From: JBFLXN01 sp040755715 [NCBI: Candidatus Edwardsbacteria bacterium]
Lineage (GTDB): Bacteria > Edwardsbacteria > AC1 > JBFLXN01
Direction: 5' to 3'
DNA length: 7,838 nt
Assembly (NCBI GenBank): GCA_040755715.1
Contig: JBFLXN010000129.1
Location: 1-7,838 of the forward strand
The notes beneath the pieces are model-generated. The model saw only the letters and a program-made list of their open reading frames with translations, ran no database searches and was not told the DNA's origin. Made by a program: the position numbers and the translations under genes. Below, one piece after another: positions 147-7,832 of the stretch (its first letter is position 1; each line of letters begins with the position of its first letter).

Positions 147-3100
147 TCAAAAATACGCCTTCAATTCCATCCTTCCCAAATGTTTCATCTTTTCTTTTGG
201 CTTTTCCTGTCCTGAATAATTCAGAGAAAAAGTTACATATTGACTCAGGCGATAATCAAAATTAAGACTCCAGTTTGCCGAGAGACCTACCGGCCTTTCC
301 CTGCCAATTTCTATCGGAAGTGTTTTTTCTTCTCCTTTGATTTTTCTTTGCGTAATTGTCGTTTCTAATTCCAGTCGTCCTTTTTCTTTCAGAAAATAAA
401 TTAACTGGGGAGTGAGACTGTAGGATAAAAGTTTAATTGTCCCGAGTTGCGGGTAAAAAGCTGGCTGACTGGTCTTTTCCTGTTTCAATTCTGGTTTCAA
501 CGATATTTGCCAAAATTGCTTAGGCTTCTCCATAATTTTTACTCCTAAAAGCAAAATGTGAATCTCTGTCTCTATTCCTAACTCGGCGCTTTTTTCTATT
601 TCTTCCTTTTTCTCAAAAGTCCCTTCTAATGAACCAGTCCGGCTATAGGTTGAATTTATTTTTAGTCTCTCCTTTTCCTCCAGTCTTTCCAGATGGCGGC
701 TCAAATATTGATTGTCTTCTGCATCCTTACGAAAGTAATAGACAATCATAGAAAAATTTTTCTGTTTTGGAGAAAATGTTATTTCTTCTTCCAACTGGGT
801 TTCTCCAATAATGGTAGTAGTGTCATTTTGAAAAACTTTTGGATTTAAAAGATATACTTTGAGTTTATCTCTTTCTTTAGTCTTTTCTCTCACCAAAAGA
901 TTAGTTTCACTCTGAAAATATTGCAGAATATTTTTACTGGAATCTGCTAAAAATTTTCCTGGGGTAAGATAGATTTTTACTCGGGCGGAAAGGTCTGTCA
1001 AGGGTTGAACTTCACCTTGTGGTATAATTTCTCGCCGGTAGTTTCCTTCTGGGTCAGGATAAAATCTCCCGGTTTGTGGGTCTTGGCTATAATTGCCGGT
1101 CTTTGGTGCTACCTCATAAAATCGTTCCACAAAAAGCGCCTCCTGAATATTTGTTACTGAATATTCCAAAACACCATTTGTTGCTCTTGATGGTTGAGTC
1201 TCTAATCTTAGAGAAAAGAGGTCATTGCTGATATTTGTTCCTGGCATATCTCGCTCAAAAAGACATTGATAGTGTGTTCCCTCAAAGTTTAAAAGGAAAG
1301 CCGGTGTTCTTCTCAGACTCAAAACCCCTCTTAATGTTTGTCTCCTTGACTCTAAAATCCATCTCTGTTCCATTGTTTGATAAATTTTATCTCTCCGGTT
1401 ACTTATTTCACTACTTAAAGCAACTCCCTGCCAGGGCGTAAAACCTATTTTACCTCCCTTCTCAAAGTATCGCCATCCAGAAAATTCTGGACTTTTAGTC
1501 TCATCTTTTTCCCAAGCAAGGCGCAACATTGGAGTTAGCTGCCAGAAGTTATATCCAAATAAAATCTCATCAGTGAAACGTTTCCCTTCTCGGACTTTTG
1601 AAGAGAGAGAATCCGTCTGGTTTTTGACTCTTTCCTGGCGGTATTGAGTAAATATTCTTTCACTTTTAGTAGTCAGTTGAAACGCCTGATGCAAGCTCTT
1701 GAATTCACCCTTTGATAATCTACCATATTCCCCTTCAAAAGCGAAATATCTTAGAAAGAAATATTTTCCTTTGATTTCGTTGCTCTTCTCATCACCTCTG
1801 AGTTCTTGTCTTTCTGTTCCCCAATGGCGCTCATAGTCAAGTTTTTGTAATCTTCCGATACCTTGAAATTTTTTATCAATAAATCGGTGACTGCCTTGAA
1901 TTTCTCCTCTTCCATTTAAGAATGTCTTATACTTCAAACCCAGATTAACCTGATAAGCGCCTGCACTATTATCTTCATCATCCTTAGCTGAGAGGGCATT
2001 GGCATCAAAGATACTCTGAGCCGCCTCTACCACAGCGGAAACTGTGTTAGTTTGGAACTTGGTATCCAGGGCGAAAAGTTTTTCCGAAGCTGGTAAGGGA
2101 AGAAAAATTCTTGGCAAATAATCACCCATTCCTTTTCCGGCATAGTGGTAACCACCCAATTGAGCATCATAATTATACTCTCCATCCTGTCTTTCCACTT
2201 TAGTAAAAGAAACTAAATAATCTCCCTGTCCTTTTCCTTGATAAACAAAGACACTATCCTGTCCAAGGGTGTAATCTCCTTTTCCCTGTCCAACAAAAGT
2301 AGCTCCTGAAATCCAGGATTTGTTCGGTTCATCACCAGTTTCGGCTAAGACTTTTTTCCCTTCCTCAGTGAGGTTAAAAGAAAGTGGCCTTTGAGGATTA
2401 TCTTTTTCACTAAAAATTGTCATTCCCAGAGAAAGTCTTTTTTCAAAAAACCGTGACTCACTCCGTAAGGCAAAGAGAGACCGGCGATATCTTTCAGTAG
2501 TATATTCAAAATCAATGAGAATCCTAGATTGCGAAGTAATCAGGTGTCGCGGAGTGAAAGTGACAGCTCCGTCGCCGTATTCAATAACATAATCATTATT
2601 CTCACCTCGGACCAAAGGCTTTCCATCCAGCCAGACCTTTTCACTGCCGGCTAATATAATAATGGGATATTTTCCATTTTCACTTTTCAATTGATATGGT
2701 CCTTGTTTTCCTTCTTCACCAAAAAAGTGATTAGAAGCGAATTTTCCTTTGGAAATTGCTCCGGCTAAGGTTACGGAAAATTTGTCATAATCCACTTCGC
2801 CCTTTGCCCCTTCCAATTTGCGATTTGTCTCAGCCAATTCACTACCTTTTAGGTTCAAGTCATAATCACCGAGAGTAGCTCCTAAATTTCTTCCCTGAAT
2901 TTCTACCCACATTTTATCAATCTCTTCCAGTTTCTCGGTTGTTCCTTCAGGCTGGATGGGAAGATTTTGGTCTGAAAGAATGGCATTGACCTCTACTTCA
3001 GGGGCAATTCTACCAGAGAGATTGAGACGCAGTGATTGTTCCAGACTCAAGTCTTGACCTGAGCCAATAGTGAATCCAATGGTCTTACTCCCACCAAAAT

Positions 3101-3623
3101 TTAACGGAGATGGAAATGCAGTAAGATTTTCCTGCTTCTCTTGGCTCGGCTCAAGTGGATTGGCAGATTTATCAGTTCCCGTGTTTGGGAAGGTTTTCAA
3201 TGATTCCTCTTGTCCTTCAACTGAAACAGGCAAGGATGCCTGTTCTACCGAGCGGTGTTGGTAGCGAGATTTTAGGGGAAACGGCAGAATTTCGTAAGTT
3301 ATCTGAATTTTGTCAGTAGGCAGAAGTGAAAACAAAAAATTTATTTCACCATTATTAAAATTAAACCGATAGTCAATTTCTCTTTTCAATAATAGTGTAT
3401 CATTGAGGATAAGATTCTCACTATTGAAGATAACAAAACGATGTGGAAGAAAATACGGGCCTTTCTCTCCATTCCCTCTTAGTTCAAAGACTTTTCTGTA
3501 GAGGTTATAGGCACCAGGATATGCCTCGCTACGCTCGGCAAATGTAAAATGTAAAATGTAAAATGTAAAATGTAAAATGACGAGCCATTTTTTGCCCGTC
3601 AGTAAACGGATTACACTTCTCAT
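147..3623 (-). CDS. Large secreted outer-membrane beta-strand protein, SprA-like repeat modules (function unknown)
   Basis: This encodes about 1158 residues. The ATG at 3623 starts MRSVIRLLTGKKW followed by a hydrophobic run (LVILHFTFYILHFTFA), a convincing Sec signal peptide. An upstream TTG at 3656 would add 11 residues and overlap the cyclase stop; an AGGAAGG lies 12 bases before that TTG, while the ATG has no clear Shine-Dalgarno, so the start is uncertain. After the signal, residues about 58-112 and 319-374 share one pattern (hydrophobic strand, xDY, short strand, GxIxF/GAVTF, L, SRI/DKI, Y), suggesting a duplicated beta module. Between them lie a polar Pro/Ser/Glu linker (about 115-175) and the motif DQNLPIQPEGTTE (218-230). 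AGSEKVWLDG is near 325-334. Three GxGxGDY motifs occur at 445-451, 463-469 and 496-502. The remainder is alternating polar/aromatic beta-strand sequence ending GRMELKAYF, with the terminal Phe expected of a barrel inserted by BamA. Similar proteins are common in FCB-group and related candidate phyla, mostly unannotated. The SprA/type IX link is inference only. Confidence 0.85.
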   Translation of the reverse strand: MRSVIRLLTGKKWLVILHFTFYILHFTFAERSEAYPGAYNLYRKVFELRGNGEKGPYFLPHRFVIFNSENLILNDTLLLKREIDYRFNFNNGEINFLFSLLPTDKIQITYEILPFPLKSRYQHRSVEQASLPVSVEGQEESLKTFPNTGTDKSANPLEPSQEKQENLTAFPSPLNFGGSKTIGFTIGSGQDLSLEQSLRLNLSGRIAPEVEVNAILSDQNLPIQPEGTTEKLEEIDKMWVEIQGRNLGATLGDYDLNLKGSELAETNRKLEGAKGEVDYDKFSVTLAGAISKGKFASNHFFGEEGKQGPYQLKSENGKYPIIILAGSEKVWLDGKPLVRGENNDYVIEYGDGAVTFTPRHLITSQSRILIDFEYTTERYRRSLFALRSESRFFEKRLSLGMTIFSEKDNPQRPLSFNLTEEGKKVLAETGDEPNKSWISGATFVGQGKGDYTLGQDSVFVYQGKGQGDYLVSFTKVERQDGEYNYDAQLGGYHYAGKGMGDYLPRIFLPLPASEKLFALDTKFQTNTVSAVVEAAQSIFDANALSAKDDEDNSAGAYQVNLGLKYKTFLNGRGEIQGSHRFIDKKFQGIGRLQKLDYERHWGTERQELRGDEKSNEIKGKYFFLRYFAFEGEYGRLSKGEFKSLHQAFQLTTKSERIFTQYRQERVKNQTDSLSSKVREGKRFTDEILFGYNFWQLTPMLRLAWEKDETKSPEFSGWRYFEKGGKIGFTPWQGVALSSEISNRRDKIYQTMEQRWILESRRQTLRGVLSLRRTPAFLLNFEGTHYQCLFERDMPGTNISNDLFSLRLETQPSRATNGVLEYSVTNIQEALFVERFYEVAPKTGNYSQDPQTGRFYPDPEGNYRREIIPQGEVQPLTDLSARVKIYLTPGKFLADSSKNILQYFQSETNLLVREKTKERDKLKVYLLNPKVFQNDTTTIIGETQLEEEITFSPKQKNFSMIVYYFRKDAEDNQYLSRHLERLEEKERLKINSTYSRTGSLEGTFEKKEEIEKSAELGIETEIHILLLGVKIMEKPKQFWQISLKPELKQEKTSQPAFYPQLGTIKLLSYSLTPQLIYFLKEKGRLELETTITQRKIKGEEKTLPIEIGRERPVGLSANWSLNFDYRLSQYVTFSLNYSGQEKPKEKMKHLGRMELKAYF
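3540..3580 (-). repeat. Heptanucleotide tandem repeat, about 5.9 copies, inside a signal peptide
   Basis: The plus strand reads AAATGTA repeated five times without error, then AAATGA (41 bases). On the coding strand it encodes the hydrophobic core of the surface protein's signal peptide, HFTFYILHFTF. Because 7 is not a multiple of 3, three units make one 21-base cycle. All three minus-strand frames therefore read the same heptapeptide, ILHFTFY, without a stop. Gain or loss of one unit would shift the downstream frame, which meets CRA-stop in one alternative frame and a stop about 20 codons on in the other. Heptanucleotide short tandem repeats are known in cyanobacteria and in the promoters of Haemophilus HMW adhesin genes. 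Confidence 0.95.
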
Positions 3624-3643
3624 AGCTTTGTGGAGTGCGGGAT

Positions 3644-4666
3644 TTAGGCAAAGCAAACTCGGTTTTTGCCTTCCTGCTTTGCCTGATACAAAGCCTGGTC
3701 AGCTTTATCAATTAGTTGTTTTATCTCCCGGCCATCCTTTGGATAGGTTGCTACACCGAGGCTAATCGTTAACTTTTTGAGTGGCTGACAATTCTCTTTC
3801 GGAAATTGCTGGCTCTCCACTGCTCTTCTAATTTTTTCGGCGACGACGATTCCTCCCCTCTTATCTGTCTCTGGAAGAAGAATAACGAACTCCTCACCTC
3901 CATACCGAGTTACAATATCGCTATGACGAGTCATGTGTTTCATAATCTTCGCAATTTCTCGCAAGACATAGTCGCCTTTTGAGTGGCCGCAAGAATCGTT
4001 GTAGTTTTTGAACCAGTCAACATCAATCATCACCAAAGAAAATGGATGTTCGTAGCGGTTAGCCCTTTTTTCTTCCTCCTGTAGGTGCTCTTGAAAATAG
4101 CGTCTGTTGAAAAGTTTTGTTAAGGGATCTGTATTAGCCGAAAATTTCAGTCGCTCGTAAAGTAGAATGTTTTCAATAGCGATTGAGGCCTGATGTGCCA
4201 CAGTGGTGAGAGCGTCAAGGTCATTTTGATCAAAGGCATTAACCTTATCACTCTCCACATTCAACACACCTACTATTTTATTTCTAATCCTCAAAGGAAC
4301 AGCTAACTCTGACTTCACTTCTTTCCAGCCTTCTTTATAGCGTGGTTCTTTTCTCACATCCGGTATTAGCAGAGGCTTACCGTATTTAGCCACCCAGCCG
4401 ATAATTCCTTCTCCACCAACCACAAAATGAAATCGTTTTATCACTTCTGGTTTATATCCCTGAAAGGCTCTAACCACCAGTTCGTTGTTTCTGGCTTTTC
4501 GCATCAAAATGGTACAGTTATAATAATGAAGTCTCTCATAAGTAACCTTGACAATATTCTGTAGGAGCTCATCTAAATTATGAATTGAACTGAGAAGCAA
4601 ACCAATTTCTTGCAGGGCTTTTAAAGTAGCGATTCTTTTGTCTATTCCTGGATTAGAGTGAGGCAT
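3644..4666 (-). CDS. GAF-GGDEF diguanylate cyclase
   Basis: This is a cytoplasmic enzyme predicted to make cyclic di-GMP from two GTP. It has 340 residues from the ATG at 4666 (TAGGT six bases upstream). A GTG at 4702 with GGAG before it would add 12 residues, but it lies at the edge of a repeat, so I prefer the ATG. An N-terminal GAF sensor domain covers about 18-172 (GGEGIIGWVAKYGKPLLIPDV, SELAVPLR, IVGVLNVES). A GGDEF domain covers about 176-340: TDPLTKLFNRR, metal-site Asp in MIDVDWFKNYND (about 213-224), signature GGEEF at 256-260 and TISLGVATYP. RHSD at 247-250 sits exactly five residues before GGEEF, an intact RxxD inhibitory site, so product feedback is expected. There are no membrane helices, receiver domain or EAL domain. 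The GAF ligand cannot be read from sequence. The surface-protein ATG lies 20 bases past the stop, so the two are probably cotranscribed. Confidence 0.95.
   Translation of the reverse strand: MPHSNPGIDKRIATLKALQEIGLLLSSIHNLDELLQNIVKVTYERLHYYNCTILMRKARNNELVVRAFQGYKPEVIKRFHFVVGGEGIIGWVAKYGKPLLIPDVRKEPRYKEGWKEVKSELAVPLRIRNKIVGVLNVESDKVNAFDQNDLDALTTVAHQASIAIENILLYERLKFSANTDPLTKLFNRRYFQEHLQEEEKRANRYEHPFSLVMIDVDWFKNYNDSCGHSKGDYVLREIAKIMKHMTRHSDIVTRYGGEEFVILLPETDKRGGIVVAEKIRRAVESQQFPKENCQPLKKLTISLGVATYPKDGREIKQLIDKADQALYQAKQEGKNRVCFA
3645..3684 (-). other. 10-bp inverted repeat at the cyclase / surface-protein junction
   Basis: AGGCAAAGCA (plus strand 3645-3654) is perfectly complementary to TGCTTTGCCT (3675-3684), with a 20-base loop. 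One further G-U pair could form in the minus-strand transcript. The hairpin covers the last codons and stop of the cyclase. Its loop contains the AGGAAGG that could serve the alternative TTG start of the surface protein. It could set relative translation or mRNA stability of the two genes. There is no U-tract after it, so it is not a standard terminator. It may also be chance imposed by the coding sequence. Confidence 0.45.
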
Positions 4667-4700
4667 TTTTGACCTACAATTTTTTCGGCGATTGAAAATC

Positions 4701-4793
4701 ACTGCCTACTCCGAGCAAAGCGCTCCTGCGTCTCCTGCGAACAAAGTGATACTGCGTTTACTCCGAGCGTAGCGATCCTACGGTTCCTCCGAT
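4701..4793. repeat. Degenerate tandem repeat between dehydrogenase and cyclase
   Basis: Two imperfect direct copies, 4701-4740 and 4751-4792, share ACTGC..TACTCCGAGC..AGCG.TCCT.CG..TCCT.CGA. The segment between and overlapping them (about 4736-4757, CGAACAAAGTGATACTGCG) resembles CGAGCAAAGCGCTCCTGCG of the first copy. The array is therefore better described as three units of about 26-28 bases. The core CCGAGCGTAGCGA recurs in opposite orientation inside the surface-protein gene (about 3525-3539). The array fills nearly the whole gap and supplies the GGAG and GTG of a possible longer cyclase start. I see no gene, promoter or terminator in the gap. Confidence 0.75.
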
Positions 4794-4806
4794 TTTTCCC
4801 AATCGT

Positions 4807-6222
4807 TCACTCCAAGTGAAAACAGACGGTTTTCAATTCAGTCATTTCCTCTAAGGCAAATCTGACTCCTTCTCTCCCCAAACCCGACGATTTCACTCCC
4901 CCGTATGGCATATTATCCGCACGATAGGTAGGAATTTCATTTATCATTACTCCACCTACATCAATCTTTCTAAATGCCTCAATTGCGGTAGAAATATCCT
5001 TGGTAAAAACCCCTGCTTGCAAACCATATTTCGCCTGATTTACAAATTTCATTCCTTCTTCTAATGTTCTAAAACGGTTAGCTACTATCAAGGGAGCAAA
5101 TGCCTCTTCGGTATGAACCTTGGCGTTGAAAGGCACATCTACAAGAATCGCCGGTTGAAGAAGAGAGAATTTCCTCTCACCACCGCAAAGAACTTTTCCT
5201 CCCAATGATACAGCCTCTTCAATCCATTCAGCGGCTTTCTTAGCCGCACTTTCTGAAATCATCGGACCGACCTCGGTTGATTCTTCAAGTTGATTGCCAA
5301 CTTTTAGTGCCTTTACTTTTGGTAAAAGAGTTTCCAGAAATTTTTCAAAGATAGGCTCTTGGACAAAGACTCTTTGAACCGAAATGCAGACCTGCCCTGC
5401 TAAGGTGTAGCCACCAACAGTAATCCGGCTTGAGGCTCTTTCCAAATCTGCATCAGCCATTATCACCACTGCTGAATTTGAGCCTAACTCCATTGTCGCC
5501 TTTTTAAGCCCAATTTTAGACATAATGTGTTGCCCTACTTCAAGGCTTCCTGTAAATGTCACCATTCTTATGTTTGGATTCTGCACCAATAGGTCTCCAA
5601 TTTCCCCACCCCATCCTGTTACCACTGAAAGTGCTTTGGGAGGTAAACCTGATTCTAAAAGCAACCTGGCTAATTTCAATGCTGTTAGTGGTGTAGCGGT
5701 AGCCGGCTTAAGAACAAAAGAATTCCCCCCAGCAAATCCAGGGGCAAGTTTATGAGCCACGAGATTTAATGGAAAATTAAAAGGGCTGATGGCAGCAATT
5801 ATCCCGACTGGCACGCGAAGATAAAATCCGAACTTTTTTTCCCCACCGGGGACGGCATCAAAGGGAATAATTTCACCACCAATTCTCTTCGCCTCTTCAG
5901 AAGCAATGGTGAATGTCTGGACAGCACGATTTACTTCTGTCCTTGCCTCTTTGATTGTCTTACCTGATTCTTTAGCGATAGTAACAGCAAAATCCTCCGT
6001 TTGTTTCTCAAGTCCTTCAGCGGTTTTCTTCAAGATGAAAGAACGCTCAAGGCTGGACAAACTCCTTATTTCCTTAAATCCTTGAATTGCTCCGGCCGCT
6101 GCTTCTTCTACATCAGAAGCATCTCCGGCAGGCACTGTATCAATCAAGGAATTATCAAATGGATTTCTTACTTCAATTTTTTCCCTTTTATCCCGCCATT
6201 GACCATTGATTAGGATTTGCAT
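4807..6222 (-). CDS. NAD(P)-dependent aldehyde dehydrogenase (lactaldehyde / non-phosphorylating GAPDH-like)
   Basis: This soluble enzyme of 471 residues oxidises an aldehyde to its acid or thioester with NAD(P)+. The ATG at 6222 is chosen because GGAGG lies eight bases upstream; a GTG at 6237 would place that Shine-Dalgarno inside the gene. Family residues are in place: oxyanion Asn149 in SPFNFPLN, cofactor-binding Lys172 in VLKPAT, the nucleotide loop TFTGSLEVG (about 222-230), general base Glu245 in MELGSNS, nucleophile Cys279 in AGQVCIS, and Glu373 in EEAFAP. The C-terminus carries DNMPYGGVKSSGLGREGVRFA. ELGGNS is more usual; here the second Gly is Ser. The overall pattern, especially GQVCISVQR and the C-terminal block, resembles the ALDH branch with archaeal lactaldehyde dehydrogenase (MJ1411) and non-phosphorylating glyceraldehyde-3-phosphate dehydrogenases. 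The exact aldehyde cannot be assigned. Repeat-containing gaps on both sides give no pathway clue. Confidence 0.93.
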   Translation of the reverse strand: MQILINGQWRDKREKIEVRNPFDNSLIDTVPAGDASDVEEAAAGAIQGFKEIRSLSSLERSFILKKTAEGLEKQTEDFAVTIAKESGKTIKEARTEVNRAVQTFTIASEEAKRIGGEIIPFDAVPGGEKKFGFYLRVPVGIIAAISPFNFPLNLVAHKLAPGFAGGNSFVLKPATATPLTALKLARLLLESGLPPKALSVVTGWGGEIGDLLVQNPNIRMVTFTGSLEVGQHIMSKIGLKKATMELGSNSAVVIMADADLERASSRITVGGYTLAGQVCISVQRVFVQEPIFEKFLETLLPKVKALKVGNQLEESTEVGPMISESAAKKAAEWIEEAVSLGGKVLCGGERKFSLLQPAILVDVPFNAKVHTEEAFAPLIVANRFRTLEEGMKFVNQAKYGLQAGVFTKDISTAIEAFRKIDVGGVMINEIPTYRADNMPYGGVKSSGLGREGVRFALEEMTELKTVCFHLE

Positions 6223-6240: not shown

Positions 6241-6335
6241 GACCTCTCCCTACCCCCTCCCGAGACTGTGTCATAATCCCCATTTTTGTCATTGTGACAT
6301 AGTCTCCCTGCGGGAGGGGGACAAAGGGGGCGGTC
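6241..6335. repeat. Long imperfect inverted repeat (MITE- or REP-like) between permease and dehydrogenase
   Basis: CCCCCTCCCG (6253-6262) pairs perfectly with CGGGAGGGGG (6311-6320). Inside it, AGACTGTGTCA (6263-6273) pairs with TGACATAGTCT (6295-6305) with a single G-T mismatch. A five-base bulge (6306-6310) interrupts the right arm, and the loop is 21 bases (6274-6294). Outer, weaker pairing extends to GACC (6241-6244) and GGTC (about 6332-6335). The GC-rich structure fills almost all of the 119-base gap. It has no T-tract on either strand, so it is more like a mobile or extragenic palindromic element than a terminator. In the transcript it would fold strongly and could separate expression of the two genes. 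Confidence 0.8.
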
Positions 6336-7190: not shown

Positions 7191-7283
7191 TCATTTGACA
7201 ATCTCTGCGAAAAGTTCGTGTTTCAACCTTTCTCTTATTTTTTGTCTATAACTCTGAGGATGTTCCTCTGTATAGAACTTCCA
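7191..7283 (-). pseudogene. Out-of-frame second copy of the small protein's C-terminal tail
   Basis: In a frame one base off from the 7246-7665 gene, the minus strand reads W-K-FYTEEHPQSYRQKIRERLKHE-LFAEIVK and then TGA at 7193-7191. This matches the end of the neighbouring gene (NFYTSGILNRQIRERVKHEV): FYT, RQ, I-RER, KHE and an acidic residue shortly after are shared. Codon differences in the best-matched core are mostly synonymous (AGA/AGG, GAG/GAA, TTT/TTC), the mark of once-selected coding sequence. Its stop lies 15 bases before the permease ATG, with the permease ribosome site directly after it. It is either the true end of the gene after a one-base frameshift near 7284-7290 or the remnant of a tandem paralogue. 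Confidence 0.6.
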
Positions 7284-7665
7284 TATAGACCTCGTGTTTA
7301 ACTCTTTCTCTGATTTGACGGTTTAATATGCCACTAGTATAAAAGTTAAGAACCTCATCTGTTCTTTTCTTTTCTTTTTCAAACTCTGGCAATATGCTTT
7401 TTAGATATTTCTCATCTTTGGGAACACGAATATCTTTCAATCCCAGCTTAAAAAATATCTCTAGAAAACGCGCCTCCTCTTCTGAACGACATTCTAAAAA
7501 ATATTCCTTCTTTCTGCCATACCAGGTATAAAATAGCTTCCAGCCAAAAAGGTCTTTCTCTATTCTTAAATTTTCAGGAGAATATTCCAGCTCAACTTTA
7601 CGCAAAGATTTTTTAGGCAAAGACAGGACTTTTTCTCTATACATCTCTCCAAGTAGTTTTCTCAT
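7246..7665 (-). CDS. Conserved-looking small basic protein of unknown function, possibly frameshifted at its 3' end
   Basis: I do not recognise this 139-residue protein. The ATG at 7665 has AAGGG nine bases upstream; another ATG three codons earlier (7674) directly abuts that Shine-Dalgarno and is less likely. It is rich in Lys, Arg, Glu and aromatics, with no signal peptide or membrane helix. Residues about 25-60 look like beta strands (KVELEYS, WKLFYTWYG, KEYFLEC). They are followed by helix EEEARFLEIFFKLGL, the segment DIRVPKDEKYLKSILPEFEKEKKR, and a basic helical tail with RQIRERVKHE near 116-125. The last residues (about RGTSSEL) have no counterpart in the second tail copy that follows in another frame, suggesting this stop is the product of a frameshift. 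It precedes the permease, probably in the same transcript. Confidence 0.65.
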   Translation of the reverse strand: MRKLLGEMYREKVLSLPKKSLRKVELEYSPENLRIEKDLFGWKLFYTWYGRKKEYFLECRSEEEARFLEIFFKLGLKDIRVPKDEKYLKSILPEFEKEKKRTDEVLNFYTSGILNRQIRERVKHEVYMEVLYRGTSSEL

Positions 7666-7674
7666 CGTCTGCAT

Positions 7675-7778: not shown

Positions 7779-7807
7779 TTGAGTATCCTCGGAAATTATG
7801 ATATAAT
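7779..7807 (+). promoter_or_regulatory. Strong sigma70-type promoter of a plus-strand gene beyond the right edge
   Basis: TTGAGT (-35, 7779-7784) and a perfect TATAAT (-10, 7802-7807) are separated by exactly 17 bases. Transcription would start near 7813-7816, about 15 bases before the Shine-Dalgarno, giving a very short leader. It points away from all genes in the window, so it serves a divergent gene starting just past 7838. Confidence 0.8.
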
Positions 7808-7832
7808 TTAAATGTCAAAAAATTTCCGAGGA
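7786..7832. promoter_or_regulatory. Perfect 12-bp inverted repeat flanking the -10 box (candidate paired operator)
   Basis: TCCTCGGAAATT (7786-7797) is the exact reverse complement of AATTTCCGAGGA (7821-7832), with a 23-base spacer holding the -10 box and the expected start site. The left arm lies between -35 and -10 and the right arm overlaps the Shine-Dalgarno. The centres are 35 bases apart, about 3.3 helical turns. Because the left arm is upstream of the expected start site, transcripts from this promoter would not contain both arms. This favours two protein-binding sites over an RNA hairpin. Confidence 0.75.

What the first reader, a model, noticed from the sequence alone, without database searches (positions are those of the whole stretch)
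3540..3580. Heptanucleotide repeat encoding the signal-peptide core of a giant surface protein: candidate phase-variation switch
Nearly six perfect 7-bp units lie in the first 30 codons of a predicted outer-membrane protein. Unit gain or loss by slippage would turn the protein off, because both other frames soon stop. Unusually, each of the three frames through the repeat encodes the same hydrophobic heptapeptide ILHFTFY. A second ATG in another frame (3588, MAR followed by the same run) would supply a signal-like N-terminus too. The repeat may thus tolerate frame changes by using different start codons, combining ON/OFF switching with a graded change of the signal peptide. Contingency loci of this type are known in host-associated pathogens; in free-living candidate phyla they are little studied.
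Basis: partly seen in the sequence, partly recalled or inferred. Interest (0 to 1): 0.72.

Follow-up and report, generated by a model that had tools for sequence, protein, structure and literature searches.

The report
Seven-base repeat in a signal peptide
A short, slippage-prone stretch of seven-base repeats sits at the start of a large predicted exported-protein gene in an unidentified bacterium; it could act as a known type of on/off switch, but no sequences were at hand to show whether it ever changes length.

Summary
The array is real: 5.7 perfect AAATGTA units at 3540-3579, far beyond chance. On the minus strand it is in frame in a 1158-codon ORF and encodes residues 16-28, most of the hydrophobic core of a signal-peptide-like N-terminus. 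No in-frame ATG/GTG/TTG lies between the array and 3389, and codons after the array look coding, so an intact gene should start upstream of it. Two corrections: identical heptapeptides in three frames are unavoidable for any stop-free 7-bp repeat; and losing one unit puts ATG3588 in frame, whereas gaining one leaves no start. New here: a terminator-like hairpin adjoins the array, 42 nt after the diguanylate cyclase stop, and ATG3623 has no Shine-Dalgarno match, so the segment may be intergenic repeat DNA rather than a selected switch. No genome was held and no relative was found, so variability is untested. Signal-peptide-region repeats (Neisseria opa) and 7-bp coding switches (neuO) are known. 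Plausible, ordinary in kind, unproven.

The parts
3540..3579 (-). heptanucleotide array, 5.7 perfect units (AAATGTA on +, ATTTTAC on -)
147..3623 (-). 1158-codon ORF of unknown family, best candidate start ATG at 3623 (TTG3656 is also in frame); array supplies residues 16-28
   Evidence: no Pfam/NCBIfam family at E<=0.001
3621..3623 (-). candidate start ATG, in frame at the present copy number; no Shine-Dalgarno match; 20 nt after the diguanylate cyclase stop codon
3586..3588 (-). second ATG (MAR...), out of frame now; in frame if one unit is lost or two are gained
3578..3601 (-). hairpin, 8-bp stem and 8-nt loop (-12.3 kcal/mol), terminator-like, overlapping the array by two bases with the array as its T-rich tail; lies inside the candidate N-terminal codons
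3526..3538 (.). 13-bp element CCGAGCGTAGCGA (minus strand), one base from the array; second exact copy, inverted, at 4763-4775 in the spacer between the diguanylate cyclase and aldehyde dehydrogenase genes
3300..3470 (-). N-terminal segment resembling residues 305-368 of the same protein (possible internal repeat); weak support for coding upstream of the next in-frame start at 3389
   Evidence: score 46, 55 of 2000 shuffles as high
3644..4666 (-). GAF-GGDEF diguanylate cyclase (ORF list starts it at GTG4702), upstream neighbour on the same strand

Best explanation
A slippage-prone 7-bp simple sequence repeat is translated as the hydrophobic core of the signal peptide of a large exported protein. 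Replication slippage would change the frame between ATG3623 and the ORF. At 2.7, 5.7 and 8.7 units ATG3623 reads into the ORF. At 4.7 and 7.7 units ATG3588 does, with a shorter and less hydrophobic leader. At 3.7 and 6.7 units no ATG, GTG or TTG does. In-phase changes of three units would shorten or lengthen the core by seven residues. Shown: the array, the frames, and the absence of in-frame downstream starts until 3389. Inferred: translation from ATG3623, export, slippage, and any benefit from switching.
For: Array far above chance. In frame with a 1158-codon ORF; no in-frame ATG/GTG/TTG between the array and 3389. Codon score in the main frame after the array is 0.20 and then 0.11 bits/codon, higher than the other two frames in both stretches. 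A possible internal repeat starts at 3470 (weak: 55 of 2000 shuffles as high). Of 201 window start codons followed by 35 stop-free codons, 3 have as hydrophobic a 12-mer plus net charge of at least +2, ATG3623 being one; the other two are TTG codons of one plus-strand frame. Copy-number table. Five full units exceed the 3-unit cut-off of one H. influenzae survey (PMC2651432, passages).
Against: No Shine-Dalgarno match at ATG3623 (duplex energy +2.0, against -6.1 or -2.0, -9.3 and -3.4 for three of four neighbour genes; the fourth, at 7674, also lacks one at +1.7). The 15 codons before the array score -0.16 bits/codon, against -0.10 and -1.43 in the other frames. The 50 residues between array and 3389 taken alone show no internal similarity (208 of 2000 shuffles as high). 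A terminator-like hairpin lies inside the first codons. A recalled E. coli OmpA leader is more hydrophobic (best 10-mer 2.66 against 2.12). No length variation could be looked for.
Confidence: 0.4

Rival explanations
1. The segment 3601-3526 is intergenic-type repeat DNA: a terminator-like hairpin after the diguanylate cyclase gene, a heptamer array as its T-rich tail, and an element repeated in another spacer. It fell into, or replaced, the 5' end of the large gene. The open frame is partly luck, and the gene may be headless, decayed or in an off state in this contig.
For: Hairpin -12.3 kcal/mol, 7th strongest distinct 31-nt hairpin of the window on both strands, and one of two in the top 15 with a T-tail score of at least 3.5. 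The 13-bp element has a second exact copy in another spacer. Upstream codons do not look coding. TAACTGA heptamer arrays in the Beggiatoaceae genome BOGUAY are mostly intergenic (PMC4679880, passages). The same heptamer in a viral contig starts at the stop codon of an ORF and runs on behind it.
Against: The other top-15 hairpin with a good T-tail lies inside the aldehyde dehydrogenase gene, so such sites also arise without a gene end, and the terminator scan of 3300-4900 found 1 site against a shuffle mean of 1.3. The N-terminus is among the most signal-like in the window. The frame is intact over the whole ORF.
Confidence: 0.33
2. The array is translated as a signal-peptide core but is neutral and rarely changes: a low-complexity hydrophobic leader without selected switching.
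For: Signal peptides tolerate sequence change (general knowledge), and 9.2% of heptamers weighted by the window's composition are stop-free and at least as hydrophobic. Five to six units is at the short end of the 2-30 units seen in the listed gonococcal opa genes (PMC5320596, passages).
Against: Five perfect units without a mismatch suggest recent expansion or turnover (inference).
Confidence: 0.22
3. The array acts as a promoter spacer or promoter (like H. influenzae hmw) for the large gene.
For: Two promoter-like matches on the minus strand within the array (5 sites in 3300-4900 on both strands, shuffle mean 2.3).
Against: A transcript starting in or after the array would carry no in-frame start codon until 3389, which would cut the apparent N-terminal segment.
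Confidence: 0.05

Closest known systems
Neisseria opa genes (CTCTT repeats in the signal-peptide region)
   Same: Tandem repeat of a unit not divisible by three in the signal-peptide (leader) coding region of a surface protein; unit number sets the frame (PMC3960869, PMC4534519, passages)
   Different: Pentamer not heptamer; opa copy number is seen to vary between strains and in passage (PMC5320596, passages), here none could be examined; no sequence link between the proteins was tested
neuO of E. coli K1 prophage CUS-3 (AAGACTC heptamer)
   Same: 7-bp unit near the start codon, three units encode one heptapeptide, multiples of three keep the frame, in-frame copies give a graded effect (PMC3046976, passages)
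   Different: The neuO heptads are an N-terminal extension of an acetyltransferase, not a signal-peptide core; 2-93 copies
TAACTGA heptamer arrays of Beggiatoaceae, Cyanobacteria and some Bacteroidetes
   Different: Different unit; in BOGUAY mostly within several nucleotides upstream of start codons
Streptococcus gallolyticus pil1 repeat/attenuator
   Same: Tandem repeat, translated leader and terminator-like stem-loop together at the head of surface genes (PMC3894217, passages)
   Different: There the repeat precedes the stem-loop in a separate leader peptide; here the hairpin precedes the repeat and both lie in the candidate ORF, so frame changes would not alter translation of the hairpin
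H. influenzae hmw1A/hmw2A heptamer arrays
   Same: 7-bp arrays controlling large surface proteins (PMC2651432, PMC8262952, passages)
   Different: They lie in the promoter region and tune expression level; here the array is downstream of the likely start codon

Membership tests
Translational phase-variable contingency locus (opa-like) | Perfect tandem repeat of non-triplet unit, above the length expected by chance | tested here: met
Translational phase-variable contingency locus (opa-like) | Repeat inside the 5' coding region, so that unit change breaks the frame from the start codon | tested here: met
   of ten unit numbers tried (1.7 to 10.7) the ATG3623 path is open at 2.7, 5.7 and 8.7 only; holds if ATG3623 is the start, which is not proven
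Translational phase-variable contingency locus (opa-like) | Copy number varies between cells or strains | not testable with these tools
   no genome held; no relative found in genome contigs, plasmids, phages or viral contigs; no reads at hand
Translational phase-variable contingency locus (opa-like) | Repeat encodes part of a signal peptide of a surface protein | tested here: inconclusive
   (hydrophobic core and charge only); no signal-peptide predictor at hand; surface location unsupported by any family or usable model
neuO-type graded heptad switch | In-frame copy number changes protein activity | not testable with these tools
   would need expression of length variants
Intergenic heptamer arrays (TAACTGA type) | Array located between genes and present in many sets through the genome | tested here: inconclusive
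   one heptamer array in the window; whole genome not available
Intrinsic terminator | GC-rich stem followed by T-run, after a gene end | tested here: inconclusive
   stem strong, tail TTTTACATTTT interrupted, number of sites not above shuffles

The most novel reading that the evidence does not exclude
A three-state switch: slippage of a 7-bp array moves one large exported protein between two start codons that give leaders of different strength, and an off state. Because any stop-free 7-bp repeat encodes the same heptapeptide in every frame, the signal-peptide core survives each frameshift. In-phase changes would also tune core length between cleavable leader and membrane anchor.
Probability: 0.1. 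Interest if true: 0.65.

Novelty: new member of a known kind. Interest (0 to 1): 0.33.

Why it matters
If copy number varies in the population, this would extend slippage-driven switching of an exported protein to a bacterium that could not be linked to any record searched here, and give a simple example of a repeat whose translation does not depend on frame. If it does not vary, it is a caution that heptamer arrays at gene starts can mimic contingency loci.

Tried and rejected
Relatives: two genome-contig scans (large protein, aldehyde dehydrogenase) matched 32 and 21 short stretches and confirmed none; two viral-contig scans (large protein, diguanylate cyclase) matched 10 and 4 and confirmed none. 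These scans start from exact short peptides. That even an aldehyde dehydrogenase found no relative shows low sensitivity, not that relatives are absent. tblastn of the large protein against plasmids (E<=1e-5) and phages (E<=1) found none. The diguanylate cyclase matched at least 5000 plasmid records, all best places under 60% identity, too general to place the organism. Whole-window blastn against plasmids gave 4 records with one short match each, 69-74% identity. The exact 5-unit and 4-unit patterns in viral contigs both hit one contig, L001. blastn of 3500-3700 against phages gave one match at E 0.2. tblastn of an artificial ILHFTFY repeat peptide at E<=10 gave 22 plasmid records (best a Proteus mirabilis record, 65% identity, E 9e-5, where the DNA is a different heptamer) and 4 phage records. 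No Rfam family reached its gathering score. AlphaFold models made without an alignment are unusable (mean pLDDT 28.3 and 29.4), so no fold search was made. Searches of the large protein began one codon before ATG3623.

Rejected: a downstream start (the next in-frame start, TTG3389, would remove codons that look coding; the support from 65 is weak). A promoter role for the array (no in-frame start codon downstream of it until 3389). 'Same peptide in three frames' as a special feature (arithmetic).

Limits of controls: the codon scores were trained on 2038 codons of the window, part of which also gave the 'coding' percentiles, so those are optimistic. The fold z-scores are for stretches chosen after seeing the hairpin; one search is the scan over the whole window. 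The copy-number table also lists TTG starts that I did not carry into the summary: TTG3656 goes with ATG3623, TTG3711 and TTG3651 go with ATG3588.

My recollections that heptamer arrays of this kind are common between genes in genomes of uncultured phyla, and that parts of the large protein resemble surface proteins of the Fibrobacterota-Chlorobiota-Bacteroidota group, come from no call and carry no weight in the scores.

Full report
Observation. The window holds one perfect heptanucleotide array, AAATGTA x5.7, at 3540-3579. The run of 33 positions matching at distance 7 compares with at most 12 in 1000 first-order Markov sequences. On the minus strand the unit is ATTTTAC, in frame in an ORF that runs from ATG3623 (or TTG3656) to 147. 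From ATG3623 the array gives residues 16-28 of MRSVIRLLTGKKWLVILHFTFYILHFTFAERSEAYPG.

Frames. Any unit of seven bases is read in all seven registers by a single frame. If one frame is free of stops all are, and all give the same heptapeptide in rotation. By count, 1612 of 2344 rotation classes are stop-free, and 222 of 2344 are both stop-free and at least as hydrophobic as ILHFTFY; weighted by window composition, 55.4% are stop-free and 9.2% are both. The three-frame identity is therefore not evidence of design, although a hydrophobic stop-free unit is a minority outcome.

Where the gene starts. In-frame starts are TTG3656 and ATG3623 upstream of the array, then none until TTG3389. Main-frame codon scores after the array are 0.20 (3539-3477) and 0.11 bits/codon (3476-3390), above the other two frames in both. 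Coding windows of 21 codons have a median of 0.31 and off-frame windows a 95th percentile of 0.20, on data partly used for training. A possible internal repeat begins at 3470 (score 46; 55 of 2000 shuffles as high), but the 50 residues before 3389 taken alone show nothing (208 of 2000). An intact gene should therefore begin before the array, unless it uses a rare start codon. Against this, ATG3623 has no Shine-Dalgarno match, and the 15 codons before the array score -0.16. ATG3623 lies 20 nt after the diguanylate cyclase stop, so re-initiation is possible (inference). Its hydrophobicity and charge are matched by 2 others of 201 start codons with 35 stop-free codons; a recalled OmpA leader is more hydrophobic.

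Copy number. With ten unit numbers from 1.7 to 10.7 tried, ATG3623 reads into the ORF at 2.7, 5.7 and 8.7; ATG3588 at 1.7, 4.7, 7.7 and 10.7; no ATG, GTG or TTG between 3720 and the array does at 3.7, 6.7 and 9.7. The leader from ATG3588 at 4.7 units is less hydrophobic (best 10-mer 1.36 against 2.12 now). ATG3588 lies in the hairpin described next.

Surroundings. A hairpin of 8 pairs (3601-3578, -12.3 kcal/mol) adjoins the array, 42 nt after the diguanylate cyclase stop, and the array gives it a T-rich tail. Among 15,614 windows of 31 nt on both strands it is the 7th strongest distinct hairpin. Its tail score is reached by 0.9% of minus-strand positions; one other of the top 15 (inside the aldehyde dehydrogenase gene) has such a tail. 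The pattern scan found one terminator-like site in 3300-4900 against a shuffle mean of 1.3. On the other side of the array lies a 13-bp element with one more exact, inverted copy at 4763-4775. The whole 3601-3526 segment could thus be intergenic repeat DNA.

Relatives. No genome is held, and the searches for relatives of the large protein found none, nor did those for the aldehyde dehydrogenase and diguanylate cyclase genes in genome and viral contigs; the scans are of low sensitivity.

Comparison. Repeats in the signal-peptide coding region of a surface-protein gene are known from Neisseria opa (PMC3960869, PMC4534519, passages), and their numbers vary between strains (PMC5320596, passages). 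A 7-bp coding repeat with frame switching and graded effect is known from neuO (PMC3046976, passages). PMC4679880 (passages) summarises a 2007 survey, which I did not see, as finding heptanucleotides the most abundant class of long simple repeats in most genomes. A repeat-plus-stem-loop switch is known from S. gallolyticus (PMC3894217, passages). Full-text searches on tandem repeats or phase variation in uncultivated or candidate-phylum bacteria gave one paper at four of five terms, none at four of five of another set, 1,788 loose hits of which 15 were listed, and 66 papers at three of five terms, 15 listed. Of the last 15, one title names an uncultivated organism, Candidatus Mycoplasma girerdii, which is host-associated (listing only). 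A review of phase variation has one passage each for 'free-living' and 'metagenom', neither on environmental candidate phyla (PMC11868660, passages). This is not proof that nothing is in print.

Verdict. A sound observation of a slippage-capable repeat that encodes a signal-peptide-like core. As a switch it is plausible but unproven, and it is of a known kind.

Noticed in passing
4707-4792: Three imperfect direct copies of a 34-nt unit spaced 26 nt apart in the spacer between the diguanylate cyclase and aldehyde dehydrogenase genes; the last copy carries the 13-bp element found next to the heptamer array.
   Followed up: partly
6253-6320: Nested inverted repeats (16-nt arms 6262-6277/6291-6306, 88% complementary, within 10-nt arms 6253-6262/6311-6320) in the spacer between the aldehyde dehydrogenase and ABC-2 permease genes.
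   Followed up: no
7786-7832: Perfect 12-bp inverted repeat TCCTCGGAAATT/AATTTCCGAGGA with 23-nt spacer at the right end of the window.
   Followed up: no
7246-7674: 142-codon ORF on the minus strand with no Pfam or NCBIfam family at E<=0.001.
   Followed up: no
L001:952-1020: The same heptamer as a 9.9-unit array overlapping and following the stop codon of a basic protein ORF in an IMG/VR contig; other AT-rich short repeats lie in the spacers of that stretch.
   Followed up: partly
L004:1521-1653: A 19-unit (ATATTTT) array in a stretch of a Proteus mirabilis record for which the held gene table lists no feature, found with the artificial heptapeptide query.
   Followed up: no
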